A stretch of DNA of 62,568 bases from a virus, in the IMG/VR virus record IMGVR_UViG_3300044953_000267, positions 1 through 62,568 of that record; one strand, written 5' to 3'. Both the position numbers and the translations under genes were made by a program. The notes under the pieces are model-generated. The model saw only the letters and a program-made list of their open reading frames with translations, made no database searches and was not told where the DNA came from. This document shows, piece by piece, positions 2,168 to 62,192 of this stretch (positions within the stretch are counted from its first letter, which is position 1; every line of letters starts with the position of its first letter).

Positions 2168-3196
2168 TTATTTTTTATATTGATTTATTACATCCAGTAC
2201 TATTGCAGGAGAATCTGTTTCTTTAATTCTATATAATGGTATATTATATTTTTTAGCAATTTCATTTTTATGAATATCATTATAATATGATTCTTTTTTA
2301 AAATTATATTTACATTCTTCTAATGTTTGTTTATGCCAAAAATCTCCATCAAATTCCAATAAAATATCATAATCTATTAAATATGCATCAAACAATTTAT
2401 AATTCAATTCATATTGTTTTTTATATTTGATATTATTATCATCAAGAAATTTATATATTTTTATTTCTAACGAAGTTTCTCCATTGTGTTTAAATATTTT
2501 TTCAAATCCCTTTTTTGATGCACTTAATAAATGTTCTCTCCATTTACATTCGTCTTTTTCTTTAACTTTTTTCCAAATATTTCCAACAACTATTTTTCTT
2601 TCTGGATGTTCTTCCCAATATTTTTTCTTTGCGATTGAAATTTTTTTATTTCTTTGCGGAGTGTATATTTTATTTTTAATATCAGGGTTATTTATAAATT
2701 TTAATCTAGCAGAATTTGATTGTTTTTCGATTGTTTCTTGAGATTTAGGTTTACGTACTGCATTTAAATGATTCTGTTTTACATCTTCTCTTTTCATTGC
2801 GATTTTTGTCAAAATAGAAATTTTTTTTCTATTATTTAAATCAGAAAAATATTTTTTTACAAATTTAGAATGAGTATGACTATGTTCATTCGTTTTTGAA
2901 TAATGCTCTACTCCATATTTATTCATAATTGTCTGTTTAGCTTTGTTTCTAGCATCAGTAGTGTTCATCAATTTTCTAGAACAAGCACGACTGCATGTTG
3001 GCGCATATCCAATCGATAAATTTATGTATTTTGTTGTTTGTTTACATATTTTACATAATATGTTTTCTTTTTTAATAAACTTATTATAATAATATTCAGA
3101 TTGAGTTTTGTGTTCTTTTATCAAATGTGTTCCTAAACTCTTAAAATTTTTACATTCACGTTGACAAAGTTGGCATGTTAATTGAGATAAAATCAT
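2168..3196 (-). CDS. Free-standing homing endonuclease with zinc fingers and Vsr/EDxHD-like nuclease domain
   Basis: 342 residues. The N-terminus has a C2H2-like finger (CQLC ... HLIKEH, about 8-29) and a second Cys cluster (CKIC, CSRAC, about 48-72). A KQTIMNKYGVEHYSK element typical of phage homing endonuclease DNA-binding regions follows, then a Lys-rich middle. The C-terminal nuclease-like domain (about 240-342) shows a Glu in GETSLE, an Asp in LFDAYL, LLEFDGDFWH, and later an Asp/His pair (YNDIHKNE), ending IPLYRIKE. This resembles the Vsr-like EDxHD family. It starts 41 bases inside the end of gp13 and separates gp13 from gp14, as expected of a mobile endonuclease gene. Family assignment is from motifs only. 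Confidence 0.75.
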   Translation of the reverse strand: MILSQLTCQLCQRECKNFKSLGTHLIKEHKTQSEYYYNKFIKKENILCKICKQTTKYINLSIGYAPTCSRACSRKLMNTTDARNKAKQTIMNKYGVEHYSKTNEHSHTHSKFVKKYFSDLNNRKKISILTKIAMKREDVKQNHLNAVRKPKSQETIEKQSNSARLKFINNPDIKNKIYTPQRNKKISIAKKKYWEEHPERKIVVGNIWKKVKEKDECKWREHLLSASKKGFEKIFKHNGETSLEIKIYKFLDDNNIKYKKQYELNYKLFDAYLIDYDILLEFDGDFWHKQTLEECKYNFKKESYYNDIHKNEIAKKYNIPLYRIKETDSPAIVLDVINQYKK

Positions 3197-4436
3197 ACAT
3201 GTTAATACATATTAATCCAAACACAAAAACGCCAACATATATAAGTAAAGGGGTTTTTCTAAGTGTTTCTTGTATTTTTTCTGCTTCAGTTGCTTTAGCA
3301 TCTAATTGAGCAGCACGACCACTTGCTTCTAAGTTTTCTCTCAATTGTGTCATGAGAACTTCTTTTTCCGCAGTTGCTTCACTTCTTAGTTCAGCACCAT
3401 CAAGAGTTACTTCTCCACCCGGAATAGGCACTGTATTATATTTCTGTAAAATACGACCTAAAGTTTCTTTACATAAAGCTAAGAAATACTTTTTAATCCA
3501 TTGTTTTCCAACAGCGTTTATACTCTTATAAACTACATTTTGATATGGTGCATTACTATAATCACTTACAACATCATAATTGCTACCACTACTAAATAAA
3601 GATCCAGTTCCAAATTTATCTTTTTCGACTACATATTCAATATAAACAGTATGATCGTAAGTAGGTATTGGAAATATCTTTAATTTATTATTTACAATTT
3701 CAAAACTATATCCACTTTTACGAACTGTATCATTAAATTCAATAGCTTGTCCGCGAAGTAAATCTTCAAAGATAGGAGTCATCAAAAATTGAGTAGCAGG
3801 ACTAAATCCGGCGAATCCCATTTCATTTAATACATTACTATATGACATACCAGTCATACTAAATGGATCGTAAATACGTGCAAATGCAGGAGGAGGACCG
3901 TGAAATACTCTTCTAACTTCAATTCTGTTATTTGATTCAGATATATTACCTATCAATGCTTGTAAATCATATGTTTGTACACTTTGTGTCAAATGTATTC
4001 CGGTTTTCTTAATATTAACATTTCCACCTACACCAACTTCACTGCCATATTGTTTTGATAATTCCACTATATATGGTATACCACTTCCTTTTACATTCAT
4101 ACCAGTAATATTAGGAGCATTTACCACTGGCATGCCTTGTAAATTTAACATATTATTTCTAATATTAAACTGATTTACTTGTGCTCCATATTCAGTAACA
4201 GCTTCTTCAAAACATGCATAAAAATTAACGTCAATCATTTCTATATCAACAATCGGATATCCTAATCTTTTTGCTGCCCAACTTGCTGCTGCTTGACAAT
4301 CAAATTCAAAATATCCTATACTTCCTGTGGCAGCACCTTCGTTCAAATAAAATCCATACGGAACATTAGATGCACTTACTGCTGATCCACTTCCGGGAAA
4401 ACGTACTCTATCTTGGTCTATATTTGCATTTGGCAT
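3156..4436 (-). CDS. 13: Neck protein gp13 with altered C-terminus
   Basis: 426 residues. The start has RLGYPIVDIEMIDVNFYACF, matching the T4 gp13 RRLGAPIINVEL region. The C-terminal part has KQWIKKYFLALCKETLGRIL and IPGGEVTLDGAELRSEATAE, very like T4 gp13 (LPGGVTIDGQ). gp13 joins gp14 to close the portal vertex before tail attachment. T4 gp13 ends shortly after this block with a short ILVG-type end. Here IYVG is followed by about 24 hydrophobic residues (VFVFGLICINMY...) encoded next to and inside the 5' end of the endonuclease gene, so the natural stop seems to have been lost on endonuclease insertion. Confidence 0.85.
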   Translation of the reverse strand: MPNANIDQDRVRFPGSGSAVSASNVPYGFYLNEGAATGSIGYFEFDCQAAASWAAKRLGYPIVDIEMIDVNFYACFEEAVTEYGAQVNQFNIRNNMLNLQGMPVVNAPNITGMNVKGSGIPYIVELSKQYGSEVGVGGNVNIKKTGIHLTQSVQTYDLQALIGNISESNNRIEVRRVFHGPPPAFARIYDPFSMTGMSYSNVLNEMGFAGFSPATQFLMTPIFEDLLRGQAIEFNDTVRKSGYSFEIVNNKLKIFPIPTYDHTVYIEYVVEKDKFGTGSLFSSGSNYDVVSDYSNAPYQNVVYKSINAVGKQWIKKYFLALCKETLGRILQKYNTVPIPGGEVTLDGAELRSEATAEKEVLMTQLRENLEASGRAAQLDAKATEAEKIQETLRKTPLLIYVGVFVFGLICINMYDFISINMPTLST

Positions 4437-6886: not shown

Positions 6887-7633
6887 TTATAATTTTCGTT
6901 TATAATACTTTACTAGTGTTTTACTAACACTATATTTTTCAGATAATTGCTGTAATGTATAATTATTTGATTGTAAATCCACTTTAAATTCAGCTTTTCT
7001 AATCTTAAATGCCGCCTTGCTTTCACTTATACGCTTTTTATCATTGTCACTCATCGCACCACGTTGCTTTCCCTTCAATCCATTGTCATAAGCATAATTC
7101 ATTTTGCGATTTTGTAGTTTTATTCTACGCTCATTATATAATTTATTACCATCCTCTTCTCCATGCTTGTCTACGAACCATTGCAGTGAATAACGACCAA
7201 TTGCTGCTTCTTTTTGCTTTTCAATAGATTCAGGTTTGTGAGTTTTTCCATGCATATGACCTTGATTGTTTGCAATTTTCATTTTTTCTAATATAGCAAT
7301 TTTATCGGAATGGTTTGTGAAATTATCACCGCCACATGCTTTGTCTGAGATATTATAGCCAATTTGGCTTGGTTTAAACATATCAAGATAAAATTGTTTG
7401 CGTTCAAAAAGTTTTGTTTCTTCCACAGTTTTAACTATTGTAAATTCAAATGAATCTTTACCATGATAATTCCATGCATGTTGCAGTTTAGGATTTATAT
7501 GTTCATTTTTTATTAAATCATTTTGATGTTCTCACCATCTTCTATCGAGATTTTTGTAAGATCCAATGTAAAATTTACCGTTGTTTTTATTGGTTATTTT
7601 GTATATTCCGCTATTTTTAGTATTGTCATTCAT
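6887..7633 (-). pseudogene. GIY-YIG homing endonuclease (Seg-like) interrupted by an in-frame TGA
   Basis: The frame starting at the ATG at 7633 reads MNDNTKNSGIYKITN, then FYIGSYKNLDRRW. This is a clear GIY-YIG catalytic start with the conserved Arg region. A TGA at 7532-7534 (codon 34) stops it. The same frame continues EHQNDLIKNEHINPKLQHAW through KTVEETKLFERKQFYLDMF and a C-terminal DNA-binding region with HMHGKTHKPESIEKQKEAA (NUMOD3-like) and a final helix-turn-helix-like block, 248 codons in all. The downstream part alone (from a GTG at 7426) lacks the catalytic motifs. The gene sits just beyond the gp23 terminator, a typical place for mobile endonucleases. Confidence 0.8.
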
Positions 7634-7757: not shown

Positions 7758-9467
7758 TTATACTTGGTCGAGATCACCAATATATACTTTTCCATAAAAT
7801 TCGGGACGGATTACCTTCTTAGCATAGCGAGTCAATACACCACGACGTGGAGTAAAGTTGACTGGATCGTATACCATTGGAGTTTGAACGAGTGGGATGT
7901 ATGGAGCGTAAACTGCACCGGTTTCGAGGAAGTTGTTTCCACGGAAACCAACCAAGATTACGTTTTCAACCATATATGGGTTCTTGTAAACTTGGAAGCG
8001 ACTTGCGAAGCTGCCAACACGAGAAACACCCATTGCAAACTTAGCGCTGTCACCATCGGTGTTAACAACATATCCCGGAATAGATTCCAAGATGGTTGCT
8101 ACGTCTGGTGAGCAAACCAAGAAGTTTGCACCACCACGGAGAGTCAATTGGTGAATCTTGTTAGATACCTTTTGAATCTTATTACCAAGAGTTTGGAACC
8201 ATGTGCTCTTGACATATGCTGTCTTGTTAGCAACATCAGTACCAACACTGATTGAACTAACGTTTCCGTTACCATCCAATGAGGTTGTCAATTCACGACC
8301 AACAACTGCGCTCCAAGCTTGAGTTGTTGCTCCCGGAGCAGCACCAATTAACATGTCAAGGATTTCAAGATCGATTTCCATTGAAACGTATTCGCTCAAG
8401 AGAGCGGTCAATTCGGCTTCAGCATCAATACTGTGGTAAGCATTCAAGTCTTGAGCCAATTCTGGGGTCCAGACTGCCTTTAACTTACGGGTCTTAGCAA
8501 CGATTGGTTCGCTCTTAAGTTCCAAGTTAACTTCTGGAATTCCGATTGAATCCAAGCTATCAGTCGATGTCTTGTCTTCGAAGTCACCACGAGTTTGATC
8601 AGTTGGTTGCTTGTTGTAAGTTACAGTGTTTCCACTGAATTGTCCACCCTTAGCACTAATTAAACCAGCAGAAGCACTGAAGAACAATACAATGCTGTAT
8701 TGTGGACTTGAGATACTTCCAGTGTTATATGCTTCGTTGAATTCATTCAAGTTAGTATAAGCACTTGCGCTTGCGATAGTGAATGAACGAACTGCATTCA
8801 AGTCTGCGTTGAAAATTGCAGAAGCATTTGGGTTACCAGCACCAGAAGTATTGTCACCCAATACAACAGTTGCTTTGTAAATTCTTGCGGCAGCAACACT
8901 TGCGCTATAATCAATATTATTATTAACATCACTATAAGAAGCAGTGTTAATAGTTAATGTTGCACTTGAAGTAGTGAATGTCAATGCACTTGAAGTAGCA
9001 TTGTTGATAGTATATCCATAACGTCCTACTCCGTAAAGACCTCCACTTGCAGCGTCGGTAGAACCAAGTTTCTTATCAGTACCACCGAACAATGATGTTC
9101 CGGAAGTAAATGGAGCCTTAGTTGTACCATACTTGAAGTCTAAATAGAAGATAAGACCGCTTGGAAGATTCATTGGTTGTACACTAACGAATTCCTTAGC
9201 ACTGATTTCAGCAAATACACGGCGAACCAATGGAAGAGCTACGCCAGCCCATTGTTCACTGTTTGCTGAAGTACCAGTTGCGGTAGCTTCATCAAGCAAT
9301 TGTTTTGCTTGGTTTTCGAGCATGATAGACATATTTGCCTTCTCAACACCTTGAAGACCTTCAAGAAGACCAGTCTTATCCCACTTTGATTGCAATCCAC
9401 GAGTTTCAGCCATTAATCTGGCTTGTGGATTCATATTATTTGTCAATAATGATTTAATATCACTCAT
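7758..9467 (-). CDS. 23: Major capsid protein gp23
   Basis: 569 residues. It starts MSDIKSLLTNN with a charged helical pro-region (RGLQSKWDKTGLLEGLQGVE) and then the capsid core: VRRVFAEISAKEFVSVQPMN near residue 80, LPSGLIFYLDFKYG, and the conserved C-terminal end with YAPYIPLVQTP and TPRRGVLTRYAKKVIRPEFY. It is longer than T4 gp23 (521), mainly from a Ser/Thr/Ala-rich insertion at about 135-270. The gp21 protease is expected to remove the N-terminal pro-region. Upstream are a clear AGGA ribosome binding site and an AATAAATA late promoter, and downstream is a strong terminator, as expected for a highly expressed monocistron. Confidence 0.95.
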   Translation of the reverse strand: MSDIKSLLTNNMNPQARLMAETRGLQSKWDKTGLLEGLQGVEKANMSIMLENQAKQLLDEATATGTSANSEQWAGVALPLVRRVFAEISAKEFVSVQPMNLPSGLIFYLDFKYGTTKAPFTSGTSLFGGTDKKLGSTDAASGGLYGVGRYGYTINNATSSALTFTTSSATLTINTASYSDVNNNIDYSASVAAARIYKATVVLGDNTSGAGNPNASAIFNADLNAVRSFTIASASAYTNLNEFNEAYNTGSISSPQYSIVLFFSASAGLISAKGGQFSGNTVTYNKQPTDQTRGDFEDKTSTDSLDSIGIPEVNLELKSEPIVAKTRKLKAVWTPELAQDLNAYHSIDAEAELTALLSEYVSMEIDLEILDMLIGAAPGATTQAWSAVVGRELTTSLDGNGNVSSISVGTDVANKTAYVKSTWFQTLGNKIQKVSNKIHQLTLRGGANFLVCSPDVATILESIPGYVVNTDGDSAKFAMGVSRVGSFASRFQVYKNPYMVENVILVGFRGNNFLETGAVYAPYIPLVQTPMVYDPVNFTPRRGVLTRYAKKVIRPEFYGKVYIGDLDQV

Positions 9468-18950: not shown

Positions 18951-20135
18951 TTAAAGTAACCAAGTTAAATTTTCTTTTTTATTACTTCCCAAATTCATTT
19001 GCCATGCTTCATGTGCTTCTAAATTATTTGGTTTGTACACTGCTTCTGAAGCTCCGGTTCTATTAATTCCACTTAATAAAGATTTATTTAAGTCGATTCC
19101 TTGTTGACGCAACTTTAATGCAGTATCTCTGACCCACAATCCTATTCCAAATGACATAACTAAATCGTCATGATGATTTGGCATAGCTTCAGGTTTATTA
19201 CCATTCCATATAAATGTGCTTAATTCGTTCATTAAACGAACTGAACGAACTTCAATACTACGTTCTCTAAAATACATTTCCATTCTAGATACCAATAATG
19301 GTCTTGTTTTCATCGTAGTTGTAAACCCCGGAACCATTTTCTTTTCTTCTCTATAGTATTTGTTACTCAATTGTCTTTCAACGTCTACATATTGAAGATC
19401 TGCGCTGCTATAAAATGTATTTGGATACTGTCTGTCAATAATTTGTTGTAATACTGCCCATCCAATGTTTGCATTTTCTACAACCAACAATGCATTGTTA
19501 TATTCGGTTGCCGCTCCTACCAAAAAGTTACCATAATCTTTAGTTCCTATTTGTCCTTGATATTCAGCAACTTGAGTAAAGCTTTCAACGTCAATTACGT
19601 GAAATGCACTATAATCTGAACTATCACCACGAGCTACGTCAGCACTAATTATATAGTTACGAGTATAGTCTGGATATTCCCAAATCCAATATCCTTTATC
19701 TATTCCTCTCATTTCAATTGGATCTTTTACTTTTTCTGCTTTATAAAATTCTATTGTTGGAATTTCAATAACAGTATTACCGGTTGTTGTAAAATCACAA
19801 TTATGTGATACAATACCATCTACATAGAATAAGTTTCCTCCAGCAACATTAACTATATCATATAATTCTATCTGGGAATTTATAATCTTCTTTGCTTTTA
19901 CAAATGTTAAAATTGAGTTTTCACTATCTATTTCATCTCCAATATTTAATAATTCCGCAGCTATTTCTTTTTCTTTTTGTATGAATTTATGTTCTTTTGA
20001 ACATTTAATAATTTTATTGTTTGATAACAATATTTCAACATAAGAATCTTTAATGACTTTTCTTAAACCAGAGAACGATTGATATCCACTTGGAGTTAAA
20101 ATTTTGTATTTATTGTTATTTTTTAAAGAAATCAT
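18951..20135 (-). CDS. 17: C-terminal half of a split-intein large terminase: C-intein plus TerL nuclease domain
   Basis: 394 residues. Residues 1-112 are a C-intein that carries intein block B (IIKCSKEHKF), block F (LYDIVNVAGGNLFYVDG) and the splice end IVSHN, followed by Cys+1 at 113. The extein from CDFTTTGNTVIEI onward is the second part of gp17, with its RNase H-like nuclease: ISADVARGDSSDYSAFHVID (first Asp), LLVVENANIGW (Glu) and PNHHDDLVMSFGIGLW (third acidic site). N-terminal MISLKNNNKYKILTPSGYQS resembles the start of the AceL-TerL C-intein, where block B also lies in the C-half. The start overlaps the endonuclease stop (ATGA), so translation is coupled. The expected spliced TerL is 246 + 282 = 528 residues. 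Confidence 0.92.
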   Translation of the reverse strand: MISLKNNNKYKILTPSGYQSFSGLRKVIKDSYVEILLSNNKIIKCSKEHKFIQKEKEIAAELLNIGDEIDSENSILTFVKAKKIINSQIELYDIVNVAGGNLFYVDGIVSHNCDFTTTGNTVIEIPTIEFYKAEKVKDPIEMRGIDKGYWIWEYPDYTRNYIISADVARGDSSDYSAFHVIDVESFTQVAEYQGQIGTKDYGNFLVGAATEYNNALLVVENANIGWAVLQQIIDRQYPNTFYSSADLQYVDVERQLSNKYYREEKKMVPGFTTTMKTRPLLVSRMEMYFRERSIEVRSVRLMNELSTFIWNGNKPEAMPNHHDDLVMSFGIGLWVRDTALKLRQQGIDLNKSLLSGINRTGASEAVYKPNNLEAHEAWQMNLGSNKKENLTWLL

Positions 20136-20872
20136 ATTTTTATTCTTATGAATTTACATTTTAGATGGTTTTTAATTTCAATTTGTCGTATTTTATCTTT
20201 TTTTAAATACTTTGGATTGTTATGACGATTTTCATCTATTTCTAATACAACATTTTTTATTGGATCGTAGGCATCTAAAAAATATCCTAACTCTTTTATA
20301 TAAAATTCTCCTCCGTTTTCAGCATGTATAAAATTATATCCGTATTTTTTTCCATAATTTTCAATTATGGATATTGCATTTTTATTATATCTAGGAACTA
20401 TTTGATTACCAATTTTTGATTCTAAATGTTTTAATGTAGATATTCTCTGTTTTCTTTTTGTTTCTATTGAATGTGTTTTTCCCTCCCATGTATTATGATA
20501 TGAAGGACATTTTCTACAAAAAGAAGTCCATACATACTTTTTTCCACATTCACATTTTAATTTATTAATATCACTATTATATTCAATTAAAAATTTTACT
20601 CGATATTTAAAATTATAAGAACCTTTCCACGTTTTTTGTTTTTTTAATATCAATTCTAAAATTTTTGTATGATCATAAATAGATAAATATAGTATTGGAT
20701 TTTTCTTTATTAATATTCTATTTTTTCCTTTTCCGTATAAATGCTTATATAAGTCGTTTTTTTTCAATTCACTAATTGTTTCTGATAATGTATATCTATC
20801 AGTAATCGAATTAAGATTAGTTTTTATCTTCTCCCATCCTCGTTTAACATTAACACTCACTTTTGCATTCAT
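20132..20872 (-). CDS. Vsr-like homing endonuclease between the two terminase/intein halves
   Basis: 246 residues, free-standing. The middle has a zinc-binding pattern (CECGKKYVW..FCRKCPSYH, about 120-141). The C-terminal domain (about 165-246) reads GGEFYI, YFLDAYDPIKNVVLEIDENR, a His directly after, then KKDKIRQIEIKNHLKCKFIR. This spacing of E, D, ExD/E, H and D fits the Vsr-like EDxHD endonucleases described with fractured genes and split inteins. It starts 23 bases inside the N-terminase gene in another frame and ends with an ATGA overlap onto the C-half, so all three cistrons are coupled. It is expected to cut intein-less terminase genes and spread the insert. Confidence 0.85.
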   Translation of the reverse strand: MNAKVSVNVKRGWEKIKTNLNSITDRYTLSETISELKKNDLYKHLYGKGKNRILIKKNPILYLSIYDHTKILELILKKQKTWKGSYNFKYRVKFLIEYNSDINKLKCECGKKYVWTSFCRKCPSYHNTWEGKTHSIETKRKQRISTLKHLESKIGNQIVPRYNKNAISIIENYGKKYGYNFIHAENGGEFYIKELGYFLDAYDPIKNVVLEIDENRHNNPKYLKKDKIRQIEIKNHLKCKFIRIKI

Positions 20873-21704
20873 GTATATACATATTATAGAATTCTTCCAA
20901 TGTTATAAATTTTTTCTCATTCGTTTCTGTGTTTAGAACTGAAATTTTTGACTGTCCCCATAAACAATCACATTCTTGTGCGGATCCTTTTACTCCACTT
21001 AATGCGGTTTGTTCATCTCTCCACTTTTGATTTCTTTCTGGATGTAAGTGCCAAGGCAATTTAATTGTATTAAATTTATTTCTTTTTGCTTCAGCATCAA
21101 CCCATGTTTTATAAAAGAAATTACCAACTCCATTTGGAGTACTCAATATAATTGCACGACCACCTGTACTTAGTGTGTATTGTGCAGAAAGCCATATTTC
21201 TTCAATATTATCAATAAAAGCAGCTTCGTCTATTATTAACAATGAAAGTGCAGCAGAACGACCAGCAGTACCCGCACTACTTTCTGCTTTAATAGTTGCC
21301 CCATTCTTTAATATTAAGGAAAGACGATTATTTTCAGCAAATGGAACTTTTAACCAAGATGGTAAATTATCATTTGCAAAACGAACACGAGTCACTATTT
21401 CTTTACTGGTTTCTTGTGTAATACTAATACAACGAATATTTTTATCTGTATGAAACACCATCATCCATAAACTATATGCCGCTACTAATGTACTAATACC
21501 CATTTGACGAGCTTTTAATATAATATTAAAATCATGTTCAACAATACCAGTTAATGCTTCTTCTTGAAATGGATATAAATCAAAATTAATTGTACCACGA
21601 ATAGGATGTTGAATCTTGACATATTTCTTCATGAAATATATCGGATCTTTTAAACATTTTTTATACTCTTCCTTAATTATTTCTTTTAATGTTTTTTCAG
21701 ACAT
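20850..21704 (-). CDS. 17: N-terminal half of a split-intein large terminase: TerL ATPase domain plus N-intein
   Basis: 284 residues. Residues 1-246 are the gp17 ATPase with Walker A-like KARQMGISTLVAAYSLW and Walker B LSLLIIDEAAFID, followed by LSTPNGVGNFFYKTW (coupling motif) and ending SGVKGSAQECD. Residue 247 begins a 38-residue N-intein with Cys1 (CLWGQSKISVLNTETNEK, intein block A) running to the stop. This is far shorter than the usual ~90-100 residue N-inteins, since block B is in the other half. The junction ECD/CDF places the insertion in the ATPase-nuclease linker region where T4-like TerL has a CxF motif. Its start overlaps the upstream gene by 8 bases. Confidence 0.93.
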   Translation of the reverse strand: MSEKTLKEIIKEEYKKCLKDPIYFMKKYVKIQHPIRGTINFDLYPFQEEALTGIVEHDFNIILKARQMGISTLVAAYSLWMMVFHTDKNIRCISITQETSKEIVTRVRFANDNLPSWLKVPFAENNRLSLILKNGATIKAESSAGTAGRSAALSLLIIDEAAFIDNIEEIWLSAQYTLSTGGRAIILSTPNGVGNFFYKTWVDAEAKRNKFNTIKLPWHLHPERNQKWRDEQTALSGVKGSAQECDCLWGQSKISVLNTETNEKKFITLEEFYNMYIHECKSEC

Positions 21705-22520: not shown

Positions 22521-25500
22521 TTACGCACCGGGAAATTGAGCACCTGTTGGCAAGATGTTAAAGTCAAGTACGATAAATTCAGCAGTCTTAGCTGGTTGAA
22601 GATAGATTTGTCCATAAAGAATGTTTCTATCAATCAAATCAGGCGTATTATTTTGGTCATCCATCTTAACTTGGAAGGCATACAAACCACTGCGTTGTTG
22701 TACACTTTCAAGATATGGATTAACAATACCTAAGAAACGATTTCTTGTAGCTGCGACATTTTGTTCAAATACCAAGAACTTACTGCTACTTGCAATAAAT
22801 TTCTTGAGTGCAATCAACAAGCGACGAACATTAATACGATCCAATGCACTTGCCTTGAATTGTAATGTTTTTTGACCCCATACACAAATTCCTTGACCGG
22901 GGAATGCAGCTATTGGATTAACTCTTCCTTCATAGAGAGTATCTCTTTCAGCATGAGTCAATCTGTCAAGTACTTGAACTGCTTGTGGAATTCCACCACG
23001 ATTCAATCCGGCAGGAGCAAACCATTCAGCACTTGCATTATCATTTGCTGCGTATACAGATGGCATGATAATTGAAGGAGGAACACTTACAATCTTGTTC
23101 AAATTAGTATCAAGAATCTTGACCCAAGGATAATATGTTCCTACATAGTTACTATCAACCGTCGATACATCATTGACAGCAGCATCAATTAATCCAACTG
23201 TTTGATTGCTACGAGGAAATACGATGTTATCCATGATATAGAAACAGTCTCCACGAGATTCGCACATATCGGTTACTAATTGTGCAACATAACTATGTTG
23301 ACTGTGGAAAATACCCGGAGTAACAATTAAGTTTATATCGAATTCATCCGCATTTCCAAGAGCACCAACACATTGTTTGTAAGCAATACTACCTGCACTA
23401 TTAATATTAACACAATTTAATCCTTGTGTATTTCCTGCGGTAATATCACTTCCAACATTGATTGGAACTGCTGGTGATTGACCATCAAAGCCACCTTGGA
23501 ATCCTAGTACAAATTTGCGCATCTTAACATAATTTGTTTCATTTGCTGCATCATATGTACTTGGAATACTTCCACTGGTTGCTGCTGGTAACAAAGATCC
23601 AGTTGTGCTAAATTCACCAATTGTTACATCTTCCAAATTGAAGTCTTCATTAACTCCATTACTGTCAGATGCTCCAAATGCTGGAAGTGGTGCGAAATAT
23701 TGCAACGTATCTGCGGCAACAGTTACACCAGTACTTGCAGTTGGATATAATGCAGCTAATTCATCATCAGCACCTAATGGAATATCACCGAATATTGTAC
23801 CAGACGGATACTTACCCGGAGCTTGACCATAAATACTTGCTTTAGAGTATTTTACTTTTGGAACATATGATGTTAGTGAACTTCCAATTGGAGTTGAATA
23901 TGCTTTGAATCCATAAGGAACTGCACTGACTGGATAAGCAATATCACTCATTTCAATGCGAACATATTTACTCAAGTTTGAATATGTTCCGAACTCAATA
24001 ATCTTACCTGCATAGGTAATATAATTGTATCTATCACCAATACGACGTGCAATAAAGTTTGCACTGTCAGGATCAAGAGTCAAGTTTTGGAAAATTTCCA
24101 AATACTTAGGTTTTTTGTCTGTATCACTATAGTCACGAACTGCCAATGTAAAGCTGCCCCAGTCACTTCCAGCAACTGTTCCTGCTAATTTTACATTGCC
24201 AATTTCAATCTTATACTTATTATTGGTACTTGTTCCATCTGAAAGAGTATGAACTTTAAACAATTGGAACTTAGTTGATGTAGTTGAACTACCATCGGCA
24301 CTCCAAGGAGCAATTTTTTGACTTGTTACCCAAGGAGTTGTAGCATTTGTTAATGCAAACGCACAATCACCGGCATTCAAGTTAGTTGAATAACTATCAG
24401 TAAATGTCAAAGGTTCACCAGTAGACACAGATCCTGATGGTAATGCTGCTCCAACTAATCTCCACCCATCACTTGTAGAAGTATAATTTGCAGCAACTCT
24501 CTTCAAGCTACTTTCAAAGAATTTATACAAATAAGCAGCTTCAATCTTAGTTCCACTGACTTGTTTTGCTGGATCTCCAGCAGTTGGATCAGTACCAAAT
24601 ACATTTGAAATATATTTAGAACTTGCTGGATCAATTGAGAAGTCATAGGTGCCGACAGTCGAACCATTTGATTTAAGATTCAATTTGAAATTCAAATTGT
24701 CATAATCAAAACTTCCACTATATACTCCACTTGTAGCAGAAGCAGTAATTAATGTACTTCCGCTAAATCCGGGAGCATTAAAACTACTATCCAATGACGC
24801 ATATTGGGTATCTGCCAATACTGCTAATACAAGAGGTAAACGAGCACTACTTGTATTTGGGCTACAAGGATCAGCAGATGGTGTATAACCTGCTGTAAAT
24901 GACCCGTTTAAGTTACCAAACGATCCACTAACTACACCAGAAATAATAATTTTTACTCCGCAACCATTAGTATCTCTTTGTGCTTTGAATGATCCGCTAA
25001 CTAACTTAATTGAAGAACCATCTGTGCTGATACCTTGATCCAAATTGACAATAGTCACCGAAAGACCAAATGAACCACTTACTCCAGCACCGGTAATACC
25101 ACCAACTTCAGTTAATGCTTGCAACAATTTTTGTTGAGAAGTATAATTATTATTTCCTTGTATACTACTAGATACATAGTTAATGGCTGATCCGATTGTT
25201 TGTGCAGCATTGAATGCAAATGTAAATTGTTGTCCGTAATATAATAAACTTCCACTTGGAGAAGTTACTGTTAAGTCAGTATCATCTGCGGCTACGGATT
25301 GAAATTTACCGACAAATGAACTTCCACTAGTAAATACTAAAGATCCTGCGCTTACAGCACTATTTGATCCGGTCGTATAAGTAAGTGTTTCAGCTAAACT
25401 TGATGTAGTAGTAGCATCAAAAAGCAAATATGAACTTCCACTATTCAAAGCACCTGCTGAATTGCTTCTACCCCACGTTCCGGGTTCAGCATAAAGTACA

Positions 25501-25817
25501 AATGGTTTTAATTGATTATATCCTGTCAATGCACCCACACGGCAAACGGTTACGAACCCTTTTTCTTTTAGATATTCTTTTGCTGTATAAGGTCCGTAGT
25601 AAACTCCATCTGCAACGCCGAACTTTTCTTCAAGTTCAGCCGTGCTTCTTATGAGTGTAGGGGAAAACCCCGGACCTTGTGCAAATGGTGCAACAACAAC
25701 TGCACCAATATCTGCAACACCTTGTGCGATGCCGCTAAGATCGTTTTCGCGTGTAAATACACCGGGACTTACGATTCTGTCTGTTGGACTAAATTTTCCA
25801 CCTTCAGTTATTGGCAT
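22521..25817 (-). CDS. 18: Tail sheath protein gp18, enlarged
   Basis: 1098 residues against 659 in T4. The N-terminus has the sheath start IVSPGVFTRENDLSG ... GAVVVAPFAQGPGFSPTLIR. The C-terminal third (about 760-1098) is the conserved sheath core: PWVKILDTNLNKIVSVPPSI, SAEWFAPAGLNRGG, LTHAERDTLYEGRVNPIAAF, VWGQKTLQFKASALDRINVR, and the end IDRNILYGQIYLQPAKTAEF. The middle (about 130-720) is a long Ser/Gly/Thr-rich insertion likely to form surface domains on the contractile sheath. GAAAGGAAT ribosome binding site and a GATAAATA late promoter lie upstream, and a terminator lies downstream. Confidence 0.95.
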   Translation of the reverse strand: MPITEGGKFSPTDRIVSPGVFTRENDLSGIAQGVADIGAVVVAPFAQGPGFSPTLIRSTAELEEKFGVADGVYYGPYTAKEYLKEKGFVTVCRVGALTGYNQLKPFVLYAEPGTWGRSNSAGALNSGSSYLLFDATTTSSLAETLTYTTGSNSAVSAGSLVFTSGSSFVGKFQSVAADDTDLTVTSPSGSLLYYGQQFTFAFNAAQTIGSAINYVSSSIQGNNNYTSQQKLLQALTEVGGITGAGVSGSFGLSVTIVNLDQGISTDGSSIKLVSGSFKAQRDTNGCGVKIIISGVVSGSFGNLNGSFTAGYTPSADPCSPNTSSARLPLVLAVLADTQYASLDSSFNAPGFSGSTLITASATSGVYSGSFDYDNLNFKLNLKSNGSTVGTYDFSIDPASSKYISNVFGTDPTAGDPAKQVSGTKIEAAYLYKFFESSLKRVAANYTSTSDGWRLVGAALPSGSVSTGEPLTFTDSYSTNLNAGDCAFALTNATTPWVTSQKIAPWSADGSSTTSTKFQLFKVHTLSDGTSTNNKYKIEIGNVKLAGTVAGSDWGSFTLAVRDYSDTDKKPKYLEIFQNLTLDPDSANFIARRIGDRYNYITYAGKIIEFGTYSNLSKYVRIEMSDIAYPVSAVPYGFKAYSTPIGSSLTSYVPKVKYSKASIYGQAPGKYPSGTIFGDIPLGADDELAALYPTASTGVTVAADTLQYFAPLPAFGASDSNGVNEDFNLEDVTIGEFSTTGSLLPAATSGSIPSTYDAANETNYVKMRKFVLGFQGGFDGQSPAVPINVGSDITAGNTQGLNCVNINSAGSIAYKQCVGALGNADEFDINLIVTPGIFHSQHSYVAQLVTDMCESRGDCFYIMDNIVFPRSNQTVGLIDAAVNDVSTVDSNYVGTYYPWVKILDTNLNKIVSVPPSIIMPSVYAANDNASAEWFAPAGLNRGGIPQAVQVLDRLTHAERDTLYEGRVNPIAAFPGQGICVWGQKTLQFKASALDRINVRRLLIALKKFIASSSKFLVFEQNVAATRNRFLGIVNPYLESVQQRSGLYAFQVKMDDQNNTPDLIDRNILYGQIYLQPAKTAEFIVLDFNILPTGAQFPGA

Positions 25818-60946: not shown

Positions 60947-61441
60947 TCAACTTAAATTAGTATAATAATCTTGATATTGACTGTGATTTCCTATAAAAAT
61001 CCACTTTAAATATATTTGATTTGTAGCATCATATCTATATGCGATTGCTCTATAATTTCCATTAATATCAACTGACCAATATTTTCTATTAATTTGTTTT
61101 AAAGGTTTGAAATGTAAACTTGGATCAAATGGATTTTTTAAAAATAATTGAAATTTTAATTTAGATACTTTCTTAACAGGTTCTGGTAATTTATCATACA
61201 TTTCCCAAAATTCTTTTGTAGGTCTGCTATCTACTAATATTTTTATGTTAGATGAAATCTCTGTTACATACTCCATTTCCTTTTCAAGTGAACGAGAAGT
61301 GTCAACTGGTGTATTGAAAATTTCCCAATCTGCTGTTTCTTCCCAATCTGTTGGATTTAAAAACTCAAATAATAATTTTTTGTGGCGTTCAAATGTATCA
61401 GAAAATATATTCATATCATATAAATATACAAAAAAACTCAT
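60947..61441 (-). CDS. RelE/ParE-superfamily-like protein with N-terminal extension
   Basis: 164 residues (or 155 from the second ATG at 61414). The C-terminal half (about 90-160) has FLKNPFDPSLHFKPLKQINR, then YWSVDINGNYRAIAYRY and LKWIFIGNHSQY. This is a RelE/HigB-type toxin pattern: a helix, then strands with a WSVxxNxxYRA motif and a WIGxHxxY end. The N-terminal half is an acidic helical region. No antitoxin gene is adjacent, so a classical toxin-antitoxin pair is not seen. It may act on mRNA or ribosome, but catalysis is not shown. Confidence 0.65.
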   Translation of the reverse strand: MSFFVYLYDMNIFSDTFERHKKLLFEFLNPTDWEETADWEIFNTPVDTSRSLEKEMEYVTEISSNIKILVDSRPTKEFWEMYDKLPEPVKKVSKLKFQLFLKNPFDPSLHFKPLKQINRKYWSVDINGNYRAIAYRYDATNQIYLKWIFIGNHSQYQDYYTNLS

Positions 61442-61809: not shown

Positions 61810-62192
61810 TGGTGGACGTGGCGAGAGTCGAACTCGCGTGTTTAATATATTAACTATACCAGACTACATGTTTATTCATTTTGAATTTGTTTGTGACAAT
61901 TCTAATAAATGAAAAACAAAATTGTCCTTTAGATTGCTCAATGTTCAATCATATAACACAATCCGATTATATAATTTACTCTGATAAATGTCATTTACTG
62001 TAATATCAGATATTTTACAATAAACGGGCTACCTTTTAATTAGGCAGCAACGGCGACTTCATCATAAGAGAAGTCATATGCAATTACATTGTCGTCTGCA
62101 TTTAGTTTTTTAATGGATTTTTTAGGAAGCCAACCATTATCTTCCACATGCCTAGCATAACTAGTTTATTAAATCGAAACCAGTACACGCCC
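61810..62192 (-). ncRNA. ssrA: Phage-encoded tmRNA (ssrA)
   Basis: The minus strand gives acceptor GGGCGTG (5') paired with CACGTCC (3'), an encoded CCA, a 3' T-arm GCGAGTTCGACTCTCGC and a 5' TGGTTTCGA segment, about 383 bases. An internal frame, 62040-62099, starts with GCA after TAAAT and encodes ADDNVIAYDFSYDEVAVAA then TAA, so it is a proteolysis tag ending in VAA rather than LAA. tmRNA rescues ribosomes stalled on broken mRNAs, and the tag would mark the products for degradation. It is in one piece, not circularly permuted. Confidence 0.93.

What the first reader, a model, noticed from the sequence alone, without database searches (positions are those of the whole stretch)
18951..21704. 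Large terminase split by an atypical natural split intein
The gp17 ATPase gene ends in a 38-residue N-intein (block A, Cys1). The nuclease-half gene begins with a 112-residue C-intein (blocks B, F and G, ending SHN then Cys+1). Known split inteins usually have N-halves of about 90-100 residues. This short-N type with block B in the C-half is the plan of AceL-TerL, itself found in a phage terminase, so this is a probable new member with a longer N-half and different sequence. The DNA-packaging motor would depend on trans-splicing.
Basis: partly seen in the sequence, partly recalled or inferred. Interest (0 to 1): 0.92.

Follow-up and report, generated by a model that had tools for sequence, protein, structure and literature searches.

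The report
Split-intein phage terminase carrying homing endonuclease
In this phage the DNA-packaging motor gene is broken in two by a split intein, a pair of peptide tags that join the two protein halves, with a probable DNA-cutting "homing" gene in the break; it is a well-supported new member of a known kind of intein, and relatives show that the whole insert can move between phages as one unit.

Summary
On the minus strand the T4-type large terminase is two genes. TerL-N (21704-20850) ends in a 38-aa N-intein, and TerL-C (20135-18951) starts with a 112-aa C-intein (blocks B, F, G; SHN|C).

The C-intein matches the consensus atypical intein CatC (PDB 6dsl, E=1.4e-18). Leave-window-out profiles find both intein parts and the endonuclease at one place only. 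About 40 distinct related IMG/VR cassettes sit in TerL at essentially the same position, in three states: contiguous mini-intein, split without endonuclease, split with endonuclease. 75 relatives have the uninterrupted site. In one pair of relatives the cassette differs by 3.2% and the flanking exteins by 15.5%, changing close to the intein borders, so the cassette moved as a unit.

Best explanation: an AceL/GOS-TerL-type atypical split intein restores TerL by trans-splicing, while the gap endonuclease spreads the cassette. Splicing, cleavage and homing are inferred, not shown. A 38-aa N-half is not exceptional (GOS-TerL has 37). Verdict: new member of a known kind, with useful evolutionary evidence.

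The parts
20967..21704 (-). TerL N-extein (246 aa): ATPase half, ends ...AQECD
   Evidence: Pfam Terminase_6N E=1.4e-15, PHROG 5989 E=5.6e-41; joined in frame to the C-extein in 75 relatives
20853..20966 (-). N-intein, 38 aa, Cys1, block A CLWGQSKI, helix ITLEEFY; stop codon 20850-20852
   Evidence: leave-window-out profile E=3.2e-10, only hit in six frames; 59% identical over 37 aa in L089
20132..20872 (-). Free-standing putative homing endonuclease gene (246 aa) in the gap; overlaps the end of TerL-N by 23 nt and the start of TerL-C by 4 nt
   Evidence: 27 homologues in the same gap of other phages; invariant HAENxGE...GYxxDxY...E...E..H residues; weak fold matches to I-Bth0305I and Vsr; NUMOD3, ROS_MUCR and DUF559 hits in family members
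19800..20135 (-). C-intein, 112 aa, block B KCSKEH, block F ELYDIVNV, block G ending SHN
   Evidence: PDB 6dsl_B CatC E=1.4e-18; leave-window-out profile E=1.1e-43
18951..19799 (-). TerL C-extein (282 aa plus stop), Cys+1 in CDFTTTGN, nuclease half
   Evidence: matches to gp17 nuclease structures and to terminase PHROGs

Best explanation
This is a fractured terminase gene. A class-1, atypically split intein (N-half about 30-38 aa, split after the first helix; C-half 112 aa) sits in the T4-type TerL between ATPase and nuclease, after QECD. The two precursors are translated separately, the N-intein docks into the C-intein to form a HINT fold, and Cys1, Cys+1, the block-B His and the terminal His-Asn carry out trans-splicing to give intact TerL. 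A free-standing Vsr/EDxHD-like homing endonuclease gene lies between the halves; it is proposed to cut TerL genes that lack the intein, so that the N-intein/endonuclease/C-intein unit is copied in as one cassette. Shown here: gene structure, homology, catalytic residues, empty sites, purifying selection, and unit transfer in relatives. Inferred: splicing activity, endonuclease activity and its target.
For: C-half to CatC E=1.4e-18; leave-out profiles hit N- and C-halves once each. A nucleophile at position 1 (almost always Cys) and C-terminal HN followed by Cys+1 are kept across the family. A contiguous relative (L046) aligns with both window halves, is modelled at pLDDT 96.5, and its best PDB match is the Cat intein 6dsl, with VidaL and gp41-1 close behind. 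75 of 79 intein-less relatives have the exteins joined in frame at the same point. One TerL ATPase is found in each of 11 records, including split-intein contigs of 174, 181 and 303 kb. dN/dS is well below 1 for intein and endonuclease. In L015 versus L033 the cassette is 3.2% divergent and the exteins 15.5% (Fisher p=1.8e-28), changing near the intein ends; synonymous differences in the equivalent pair L013/L033 are 0.10-0.12 in endonuclease and C-intein but 0.53-0.58 in the exteins. 28 gap endonucleases form one family. The cassette is AT-richer than the exteins.
Against: No splicing or cleavage data. The record is a 62.6-kb fragment, so a second TerL elsewhere in this phage cannot be excluded. 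The endonuclease is identified by weak domain and fold matches (Foldseek E about 0.4-0.5). Split relatives without it and contiguous relatives show that it is dispensable. The window's own cassette shows no sign of very recent transfer (WIN versus L091); unit transfer is seen clearly in one pair of relatives and more weakly in a second.
Confidence: 0.87

Rival explanations
1. The intein is inactive and the two TerL halves assemble without covalent joining, as two-chain proteins can after a gene is split by an endonuclease gene.
For: Nothing here measures splicing. The split falls between the ATPase and nuclease domains, where a two-chain enzyme is imaginable.
Against: Splicing residues are conserved across the family, and the intein is under purifying selection, with dN/dS mostly 0.08-0.29 where computable. 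Contiguous inteins at the same site cannot be tolerated without splicing.
Confidence: 0.06
2. The split gene is a decayed copy and another intact TerL serves this phage.
For: The record is a fragment of 62.6 kb.
Against: A single TerL ATPase in each of 11 records, including contigs up to 303 kb with split TerL. Both exteins are under strong purifying selection (extN 0.06, extC 0.10 for window versus L089).
Confidence: 0.04
3. The gap ORF is not a homing endonuclease but another phage gene that happens to sit there, and the intein is inherited without its help.
For: Foldseek and Pfam matches of the ORF are weak. Intein and endonuclease distances correlate with extein distances, as vertical descent would give.
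Against: Same family in the same gap in 28 cassettes, with other endonuclease families (GIY-YIG and others) taking that place elsewhere. Invariant acidic and His residues. Unit transfer of the cassette in L015/L033.
Confidence: 0.12
4. The join is made at RNA level by an intron or by ribosome bypassing, and the intein similarity is incidental.
For: Introns in phage TerL genes are known, for example in ICP1 (PMC10448857).
Against: No intron model matches the window. Both segments match intein profiles strongly, and intein ends coincide with the extein junction of empty relatives.
Confidence: 0.01

Closest known systems
AceL-TerL, GOS-TerL and the consensus Cat-TerL atypical split inteins (PDB 6dsl)
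   Same: TerL inteins with a short N-half ending after the first helix, block B in the C-half and Cys+1; the window C-half aligns with CatC at E=1.4e-18. Published N-halves are 25, 37 and 30 aa (PMC11766414).
   Different: N-half 38 aa, in which the residues beyond the ~30-aa family core overlap the next gene. Cys1 as in AceL, not Ser1 as in GOS-TerL. A gap endonuclease gene is present here; whether the AceL or GOS contigs carry one was not checked.
Fractured genes with split inteins and an intervening endonuclease (Dassa et al. 2009; known here only through citing papers and own knowledge)
   Same: Split intein halves flanking a free-standing homing endonuclease gene.
   Different: Atypical split point; the endonuclease family was not matched by sequence to a solved structure. 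The original paper is not held, so the host genes and endonucleases could not be compared.
Aeromonas phage PX29 17A/17B, Vibrio phage VP-1 and Providencia phage PSTRCR_127 terminases
   Same: TerL split in the same region by a related C-intein. PX29 is annotated 'contains putative N-intein' and 'GIY-YIG endonuclease and C-intein'. VP-1 has the same block A, CLWGQS.
   Different: Their endonucleases are GIY-YIG-like; in VP-1 it follows the N-intein in frame, in PX29 it precedes the C-intein in frame, in Providencia it is a separate ORF.
VidaL split intein (PDB 6vgv)
   Same: Atypical short N-half; HINT fold match to the contiguous relative.
   Different: Weaker sequence match (E=0.0015 for the family profile) and a split after beta-2 (S1), not after helix 1 (PMC13014065).
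I-Bth0305I / EDxHD and Vsr-fold endonucleases
   Same: Acidic/His pattern in a small nuclease core; both appear among the weak Foldseek matches (3r3p prob 0.75, 1vsr prob 0.57).
   Different: No significant sequence or fold E-value, so family membership is not established.

Membership tests
Atypical (S2) split intein of TerL, AceL/GOS/Cat type | Sequence homology of the C-half to the family | tested here: met
   CatC 6dsl_B E=1.4e-18; family profile E=2.3e-24
Atypical (S2) split intein of TerL, AceL/GOS/Cat type | Short N-half ending after helix 1, with block B in the C-half | tested here: met
   Alignment to and model of contiguous relative L046: helix 23-27, split falls in the following segment
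Atypical (S2) split intein of TerL, AceL/GOS/Cat type | N-half homologous to the known N-halves | tested here: inconclusive
   Met against environmental relatives (profile E=3.2e-10), but the 38-aa piece alone has no PDB hit and AceL/GOS N-halves were not available for direct comparison
Atypical (S2) split intein of TerL, AceL/GOS/Cat type | Trans-splicing activity | not testable with these tools
   Needs purified halves
Class 1 intein | Cys/Ser at 1, block-B His, terminal Asn with penultimate His, Cys/Ser/Thr at +1 | tested here: met
   Cys1, KCSKEH, SHN|C in the window
Fractured gene (split intein with intervening endonuclease gene) | Separate ORFs with a free-standing ORF between the intein halves | tested here: met
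   ORF 20872-20132 and 27 homologues in the same gap
Fractured gene (split intein with intervening endonuclease gene) | The intervening ORF is an endonuclease | tested here: inconclusive
   Weak domain and fold matches only for this family
Fractured gene (split intein with intervening endonuclease gene) | Uninterrupted homologous gene in relatives | tested here: met
   75 of 79 relatives joined in frame
EDxHD (Vsr-like) homing endonuclease | Catalytic-domain homology or fold | tested here: inconclusive
   3r3p prob 0.75 and 1vsr prob 0.57, but E about 0.5; DUF559 and MTES_1575 each in 2 of 25 members; no PDB sequence hit
EDxHD (Vsr-like) homing endonuclease | Site-specific cleavage of the intein-less allele | not testable with these tools
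   Needs a cleavage assay

The most novel reading that the evidence does not exclude
TerL of uncultured T4-type phages hosts a large, still mobile family of atypical split inteins in which N-intein, a gap endonuclease gene and C-intein move together as one cassette between phages. The intein passes repeatedly between split-with-endonuclease, split-without-endonuclease and contiguous states, so the origin and loss of natural gene fracture can be read from living relatives.
Probability: 0.6. Interest if true: 0.6.

Novelty: new member of a known kind. Interest (0 to 1): 0.42.

Why it matters
Split inteins with a short N-half are useful for protein labelling, and few natural ones are characterised. 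This window and about 40 distinct relatives give a set of natural pairs. The relatives also offer a view of how a split intein arises and is lost: the same site in TerL is found empty, with a contiguous intein, split without an endonuclease, and split with one. One pair shows the split intein and the separate gap gene transferred together. Whether a split intein with a free-standing endonuclease homes as a unit then becomes an experiment with a defined donor and a defined empty target.

Tried and rejected
Intron explanation: Rfam finds only tmRNA and two tRNAs. Direct PDB match of the 38-aa N-piece alone: none; resolved with a family profile. PDB sequence match for the endonuclease family: none meaningful. 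Pfam and NCBIfam intein models on the window: below their cut-offs, so CatC and family profiles carry the argument. Distances of exteins, intein and endonuclease over the whole family all correlate (rho 0.36-0.68), so that test does not show mobility by itself; the pairwise divergence test does. Tree of intein states: many weak branches and no root, so the direction of change is not claimed (quick method). A model of the window's own N:C pair was not made, because the folding tool takes one chain read directly from the DNA. The Dassa 2009, I-Bth0305I and 2022 atypical-intein papers are not held. Metagenome and GTDB collections were not scanned.

Full report
OBSERVATION. On the minus strand, TerL-N (21704-20850, 284 aa) carries the T4-type terminase ATPase (Terminase_6N E=1.4e-15; PHROG 5989 E=5.6e-41) and runs past QECD into 38 residues starting CLWGQSKI. 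TerL-C (20135-18951, 394 aa) starts with 112 residues ending VSHN, then CDFTTTGN and the nuclease domain, which matches gp17 structures. It overlaps the end of TerL-N by 23 nt and the start of TerL-C by 4 nt, so the three genes are packed as one unit.

INTEIN IDENTITY. The C-half matches CatC, the consensus of atypically split TerL inteins (PDB 6dsl_B), at E=1.4e-18 over residues 6-114. Profiles built from 38 related loci, leaving out the window and its nearest relative, find one place each in the six-frame window: N-half E=3.2e-10 and C-half E=1.1e-43; a profile of 24 gap ORFs finds the window's at E=2.2e-105. The generic Pfam intein model is only suggestive (E=7.6e-4, below its cut-off). The residues expected of a class-1 intein are present: Cys1, KCSKEH (block B), ELYDIVNV (block F), SHN|C.

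RELATIVES. A profile scan of IMG/VR returned 80 loci from a larger set. Reading their frames shows that most carry this intein in TerL at the same point, QECD|C...SHN|CDF, or two residues earlier. Three states occur. In the contiguous state (for example L046, L065, L073, L079) one ORF runs through N-extein, intein and C-extein. In the split state without endonuclease (for example L011, L024, L034, L038, L044, L048) the halves are separated by a short gap or overlap by a few nt. In the split state with endonuclease (26 of 40 distinct cassettes) the gap holds a 231-295-aa ORF. N-halves in split members are mostly 30-37 aa. The N-half of 38 aa in the window, and of 45 in its nearest relative L089, extends into the overlap with the gap ORF. 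Published values are 25 (AceL), 37 (GOS) and 30 (Cat) (PMC11766414), and 15-37 for natural atypical inteins overall (PMC13014065), so the length is not new.

EMPTY SITES. Of 79 relatives brought in by the nuclease half alone (L092-L170), 75 have the two exteins joined in frame at the insertion point and none has the intein. The closest, L092, is 91% and 79% identical to the window's two exteins. Its terminase ATPase lies in a frame of 542 aa, against about 280-300 aa in most of the split ones.

ONLY ONE TERMINASE. Searching 11 records, among them split-intein contigs of 174, 181 and 303 kb, found one TerL ATPase in each. These records are not known to be complete, but a hidden intact copy is unlikely. 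That packaging depends on splicing is therefore a likely reading, not a demonstrated one.

STRUCTURE. A contiguous relative (L046), aligned with the window halves and other members, gave an AlphaFold model with mean pLDDT 96.5. Its best PDB match is the Cat intein 6dsl (E=2.6e-7), followed by other inteins including VidaL and gp41-1. In this alignment the window's N-half ends just after helix 23-27 and its C-half starts before strand 46-49. This is the S2 split described for AceL and GOS TerL (PMC13014065). The window's own two-chain complex was not modelled.

THE GAP GENE. 28 gap ORFs, the window's included, form one BLAST family; full-length members are about 44-66% identical to it. The family has invariant residues in its last 90 positions (HAENxGE ... 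GYxxDxY ... N ... E ... E ... H) and a set of invariant cysteines, and some members have an N-terminal zinc-finger-like extension. Members hit NUMOD3, ROS_MUCR, DUF559 and a restriction-endonuclease family at modest E-values. The model (pLDDT 86.7) gives no significant fold match, but I-Bth0305I and Vsr are among the weak matches with fair probabilities (0.75 and 0.57). I read it as a Vsr/EDxHD-like homing endonuclease, with the family assignment inconclusive. Other phages carry unrelated endonucleases in the equivalent gap: GIY-YIG-like in VP-1, PX29, Providencia PSTRCR_127 and L084, and other types in L002 and L083. The gap behaves as a socket for endonuclease genes.

MOBILITY. L015 and L033 have the cassette, from N-intein to C-intein, at 3.2% divergence while the flanking terminase is 15.5% divergent (Fisher p=1.8e-28). 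The nearest flanking differences are 13 nt upstream of the N-intein and 33 nt downstream of the C-intein. Synonymous differences in the equivalent pair L013/L033 are 0.10-0.12 in endonuclease and C-intein but 0.53-0.58 in the exteins. In the pair L013/L021 the same parts differ by 0.42-0.53 against 0.49-0.66 in the exteins, so the low value is not a general slowness of the cassette. A chimeric assembly would be expected to give near-identity inside, not 3.2%. L020/L025 shows a weaker form of the same pattern (12.9% against 19.2%). The window and its nearest relative show no recent transfer. Selection on the endonuclease is purifying (dN/dS 0.09-0.28). The cassette is AT-richer than its surroundings (23% GC against 31-33% in the window's exteins).

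EVOLUTION OF THE SPLIT. On a quick tree of 40 inteins the three states are intermixed: five changes between split and contiguous by parsimony, with at least two forced by strongly supported branches. L048, split without endonuclease, groups with three endonuclease-bearing members, which suggests that the gene can be lost while the split stays. The tree is unrooted and many branches are weak, so I do not claim a direction.

CONCLUSION. This is an AceL/GOS-TerL-type atypical split intein in a fractured terminase with a gap endonuclease: a new member of a known kind. PX29 is already annotated with an N-intein, an endonuclease and a C-intein in gene 17. The added value lies in the family view and in the unit-transfer evidence. 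I found no paper in the held library that describes this for TerL, but the original fractured-gene paper is not held, so the novelty of this part is uncertain.

Noticed in passing
window 2168-3196 (-): 342-aa ORF with a Vsr-like C-terminus, overlapping the 3' end of the gene at 3156-4436 and BLAST-linked to the endonuclease in the TerL gap of L002. Possibly a second free-standing homing endonuclease.
   Followed up: partly
window 6887-7426 (-): 179-aa GTG-start ORF that resembles a truncated GIY-YIG/NUMOD homing endonuclease, next to the gp23 capsid gene at 7758; no Pfam match.
   Followed up: partly
window 61810-62192 (-): A tmRNA gene with tag ADDNVIAYDFSYDEVAVAA, flanked by tRNA-Ser and tRNA-Gln, in a phage record.
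   Followed up: no
window 60947-61441 (-): 164-aa ORF with weak ParE/HigB-like toxin similarity, next to the RNA genes.
   Followed up: no
L002 2215-7107: A TerL that appears interrupted by three inteins, two of them atypically split (Walker A site and the window's site) and one contiguous and large.
   Followed up: partly
L006 3504-4832 (Campylobacter phage Los1): A related C-intein begins the TerL C-half at a different site (before CAFID), with no N-half in the adjacent sequence; the N-half is presumably elsewhere in the genome.
   Followed up: no
L005 1102-3216 (Vibrio phage VmeM-32): A contiguous relative of this intein at the Walker B site of TerL, plus what looks like a separate C-intein at the start of the same ORF.
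   Followed up: partly
window 22521-25817 (-): A tail sheath protein of 1098 aa, about twice the length of the main sheath profile (496 positions).
   Followed up: no
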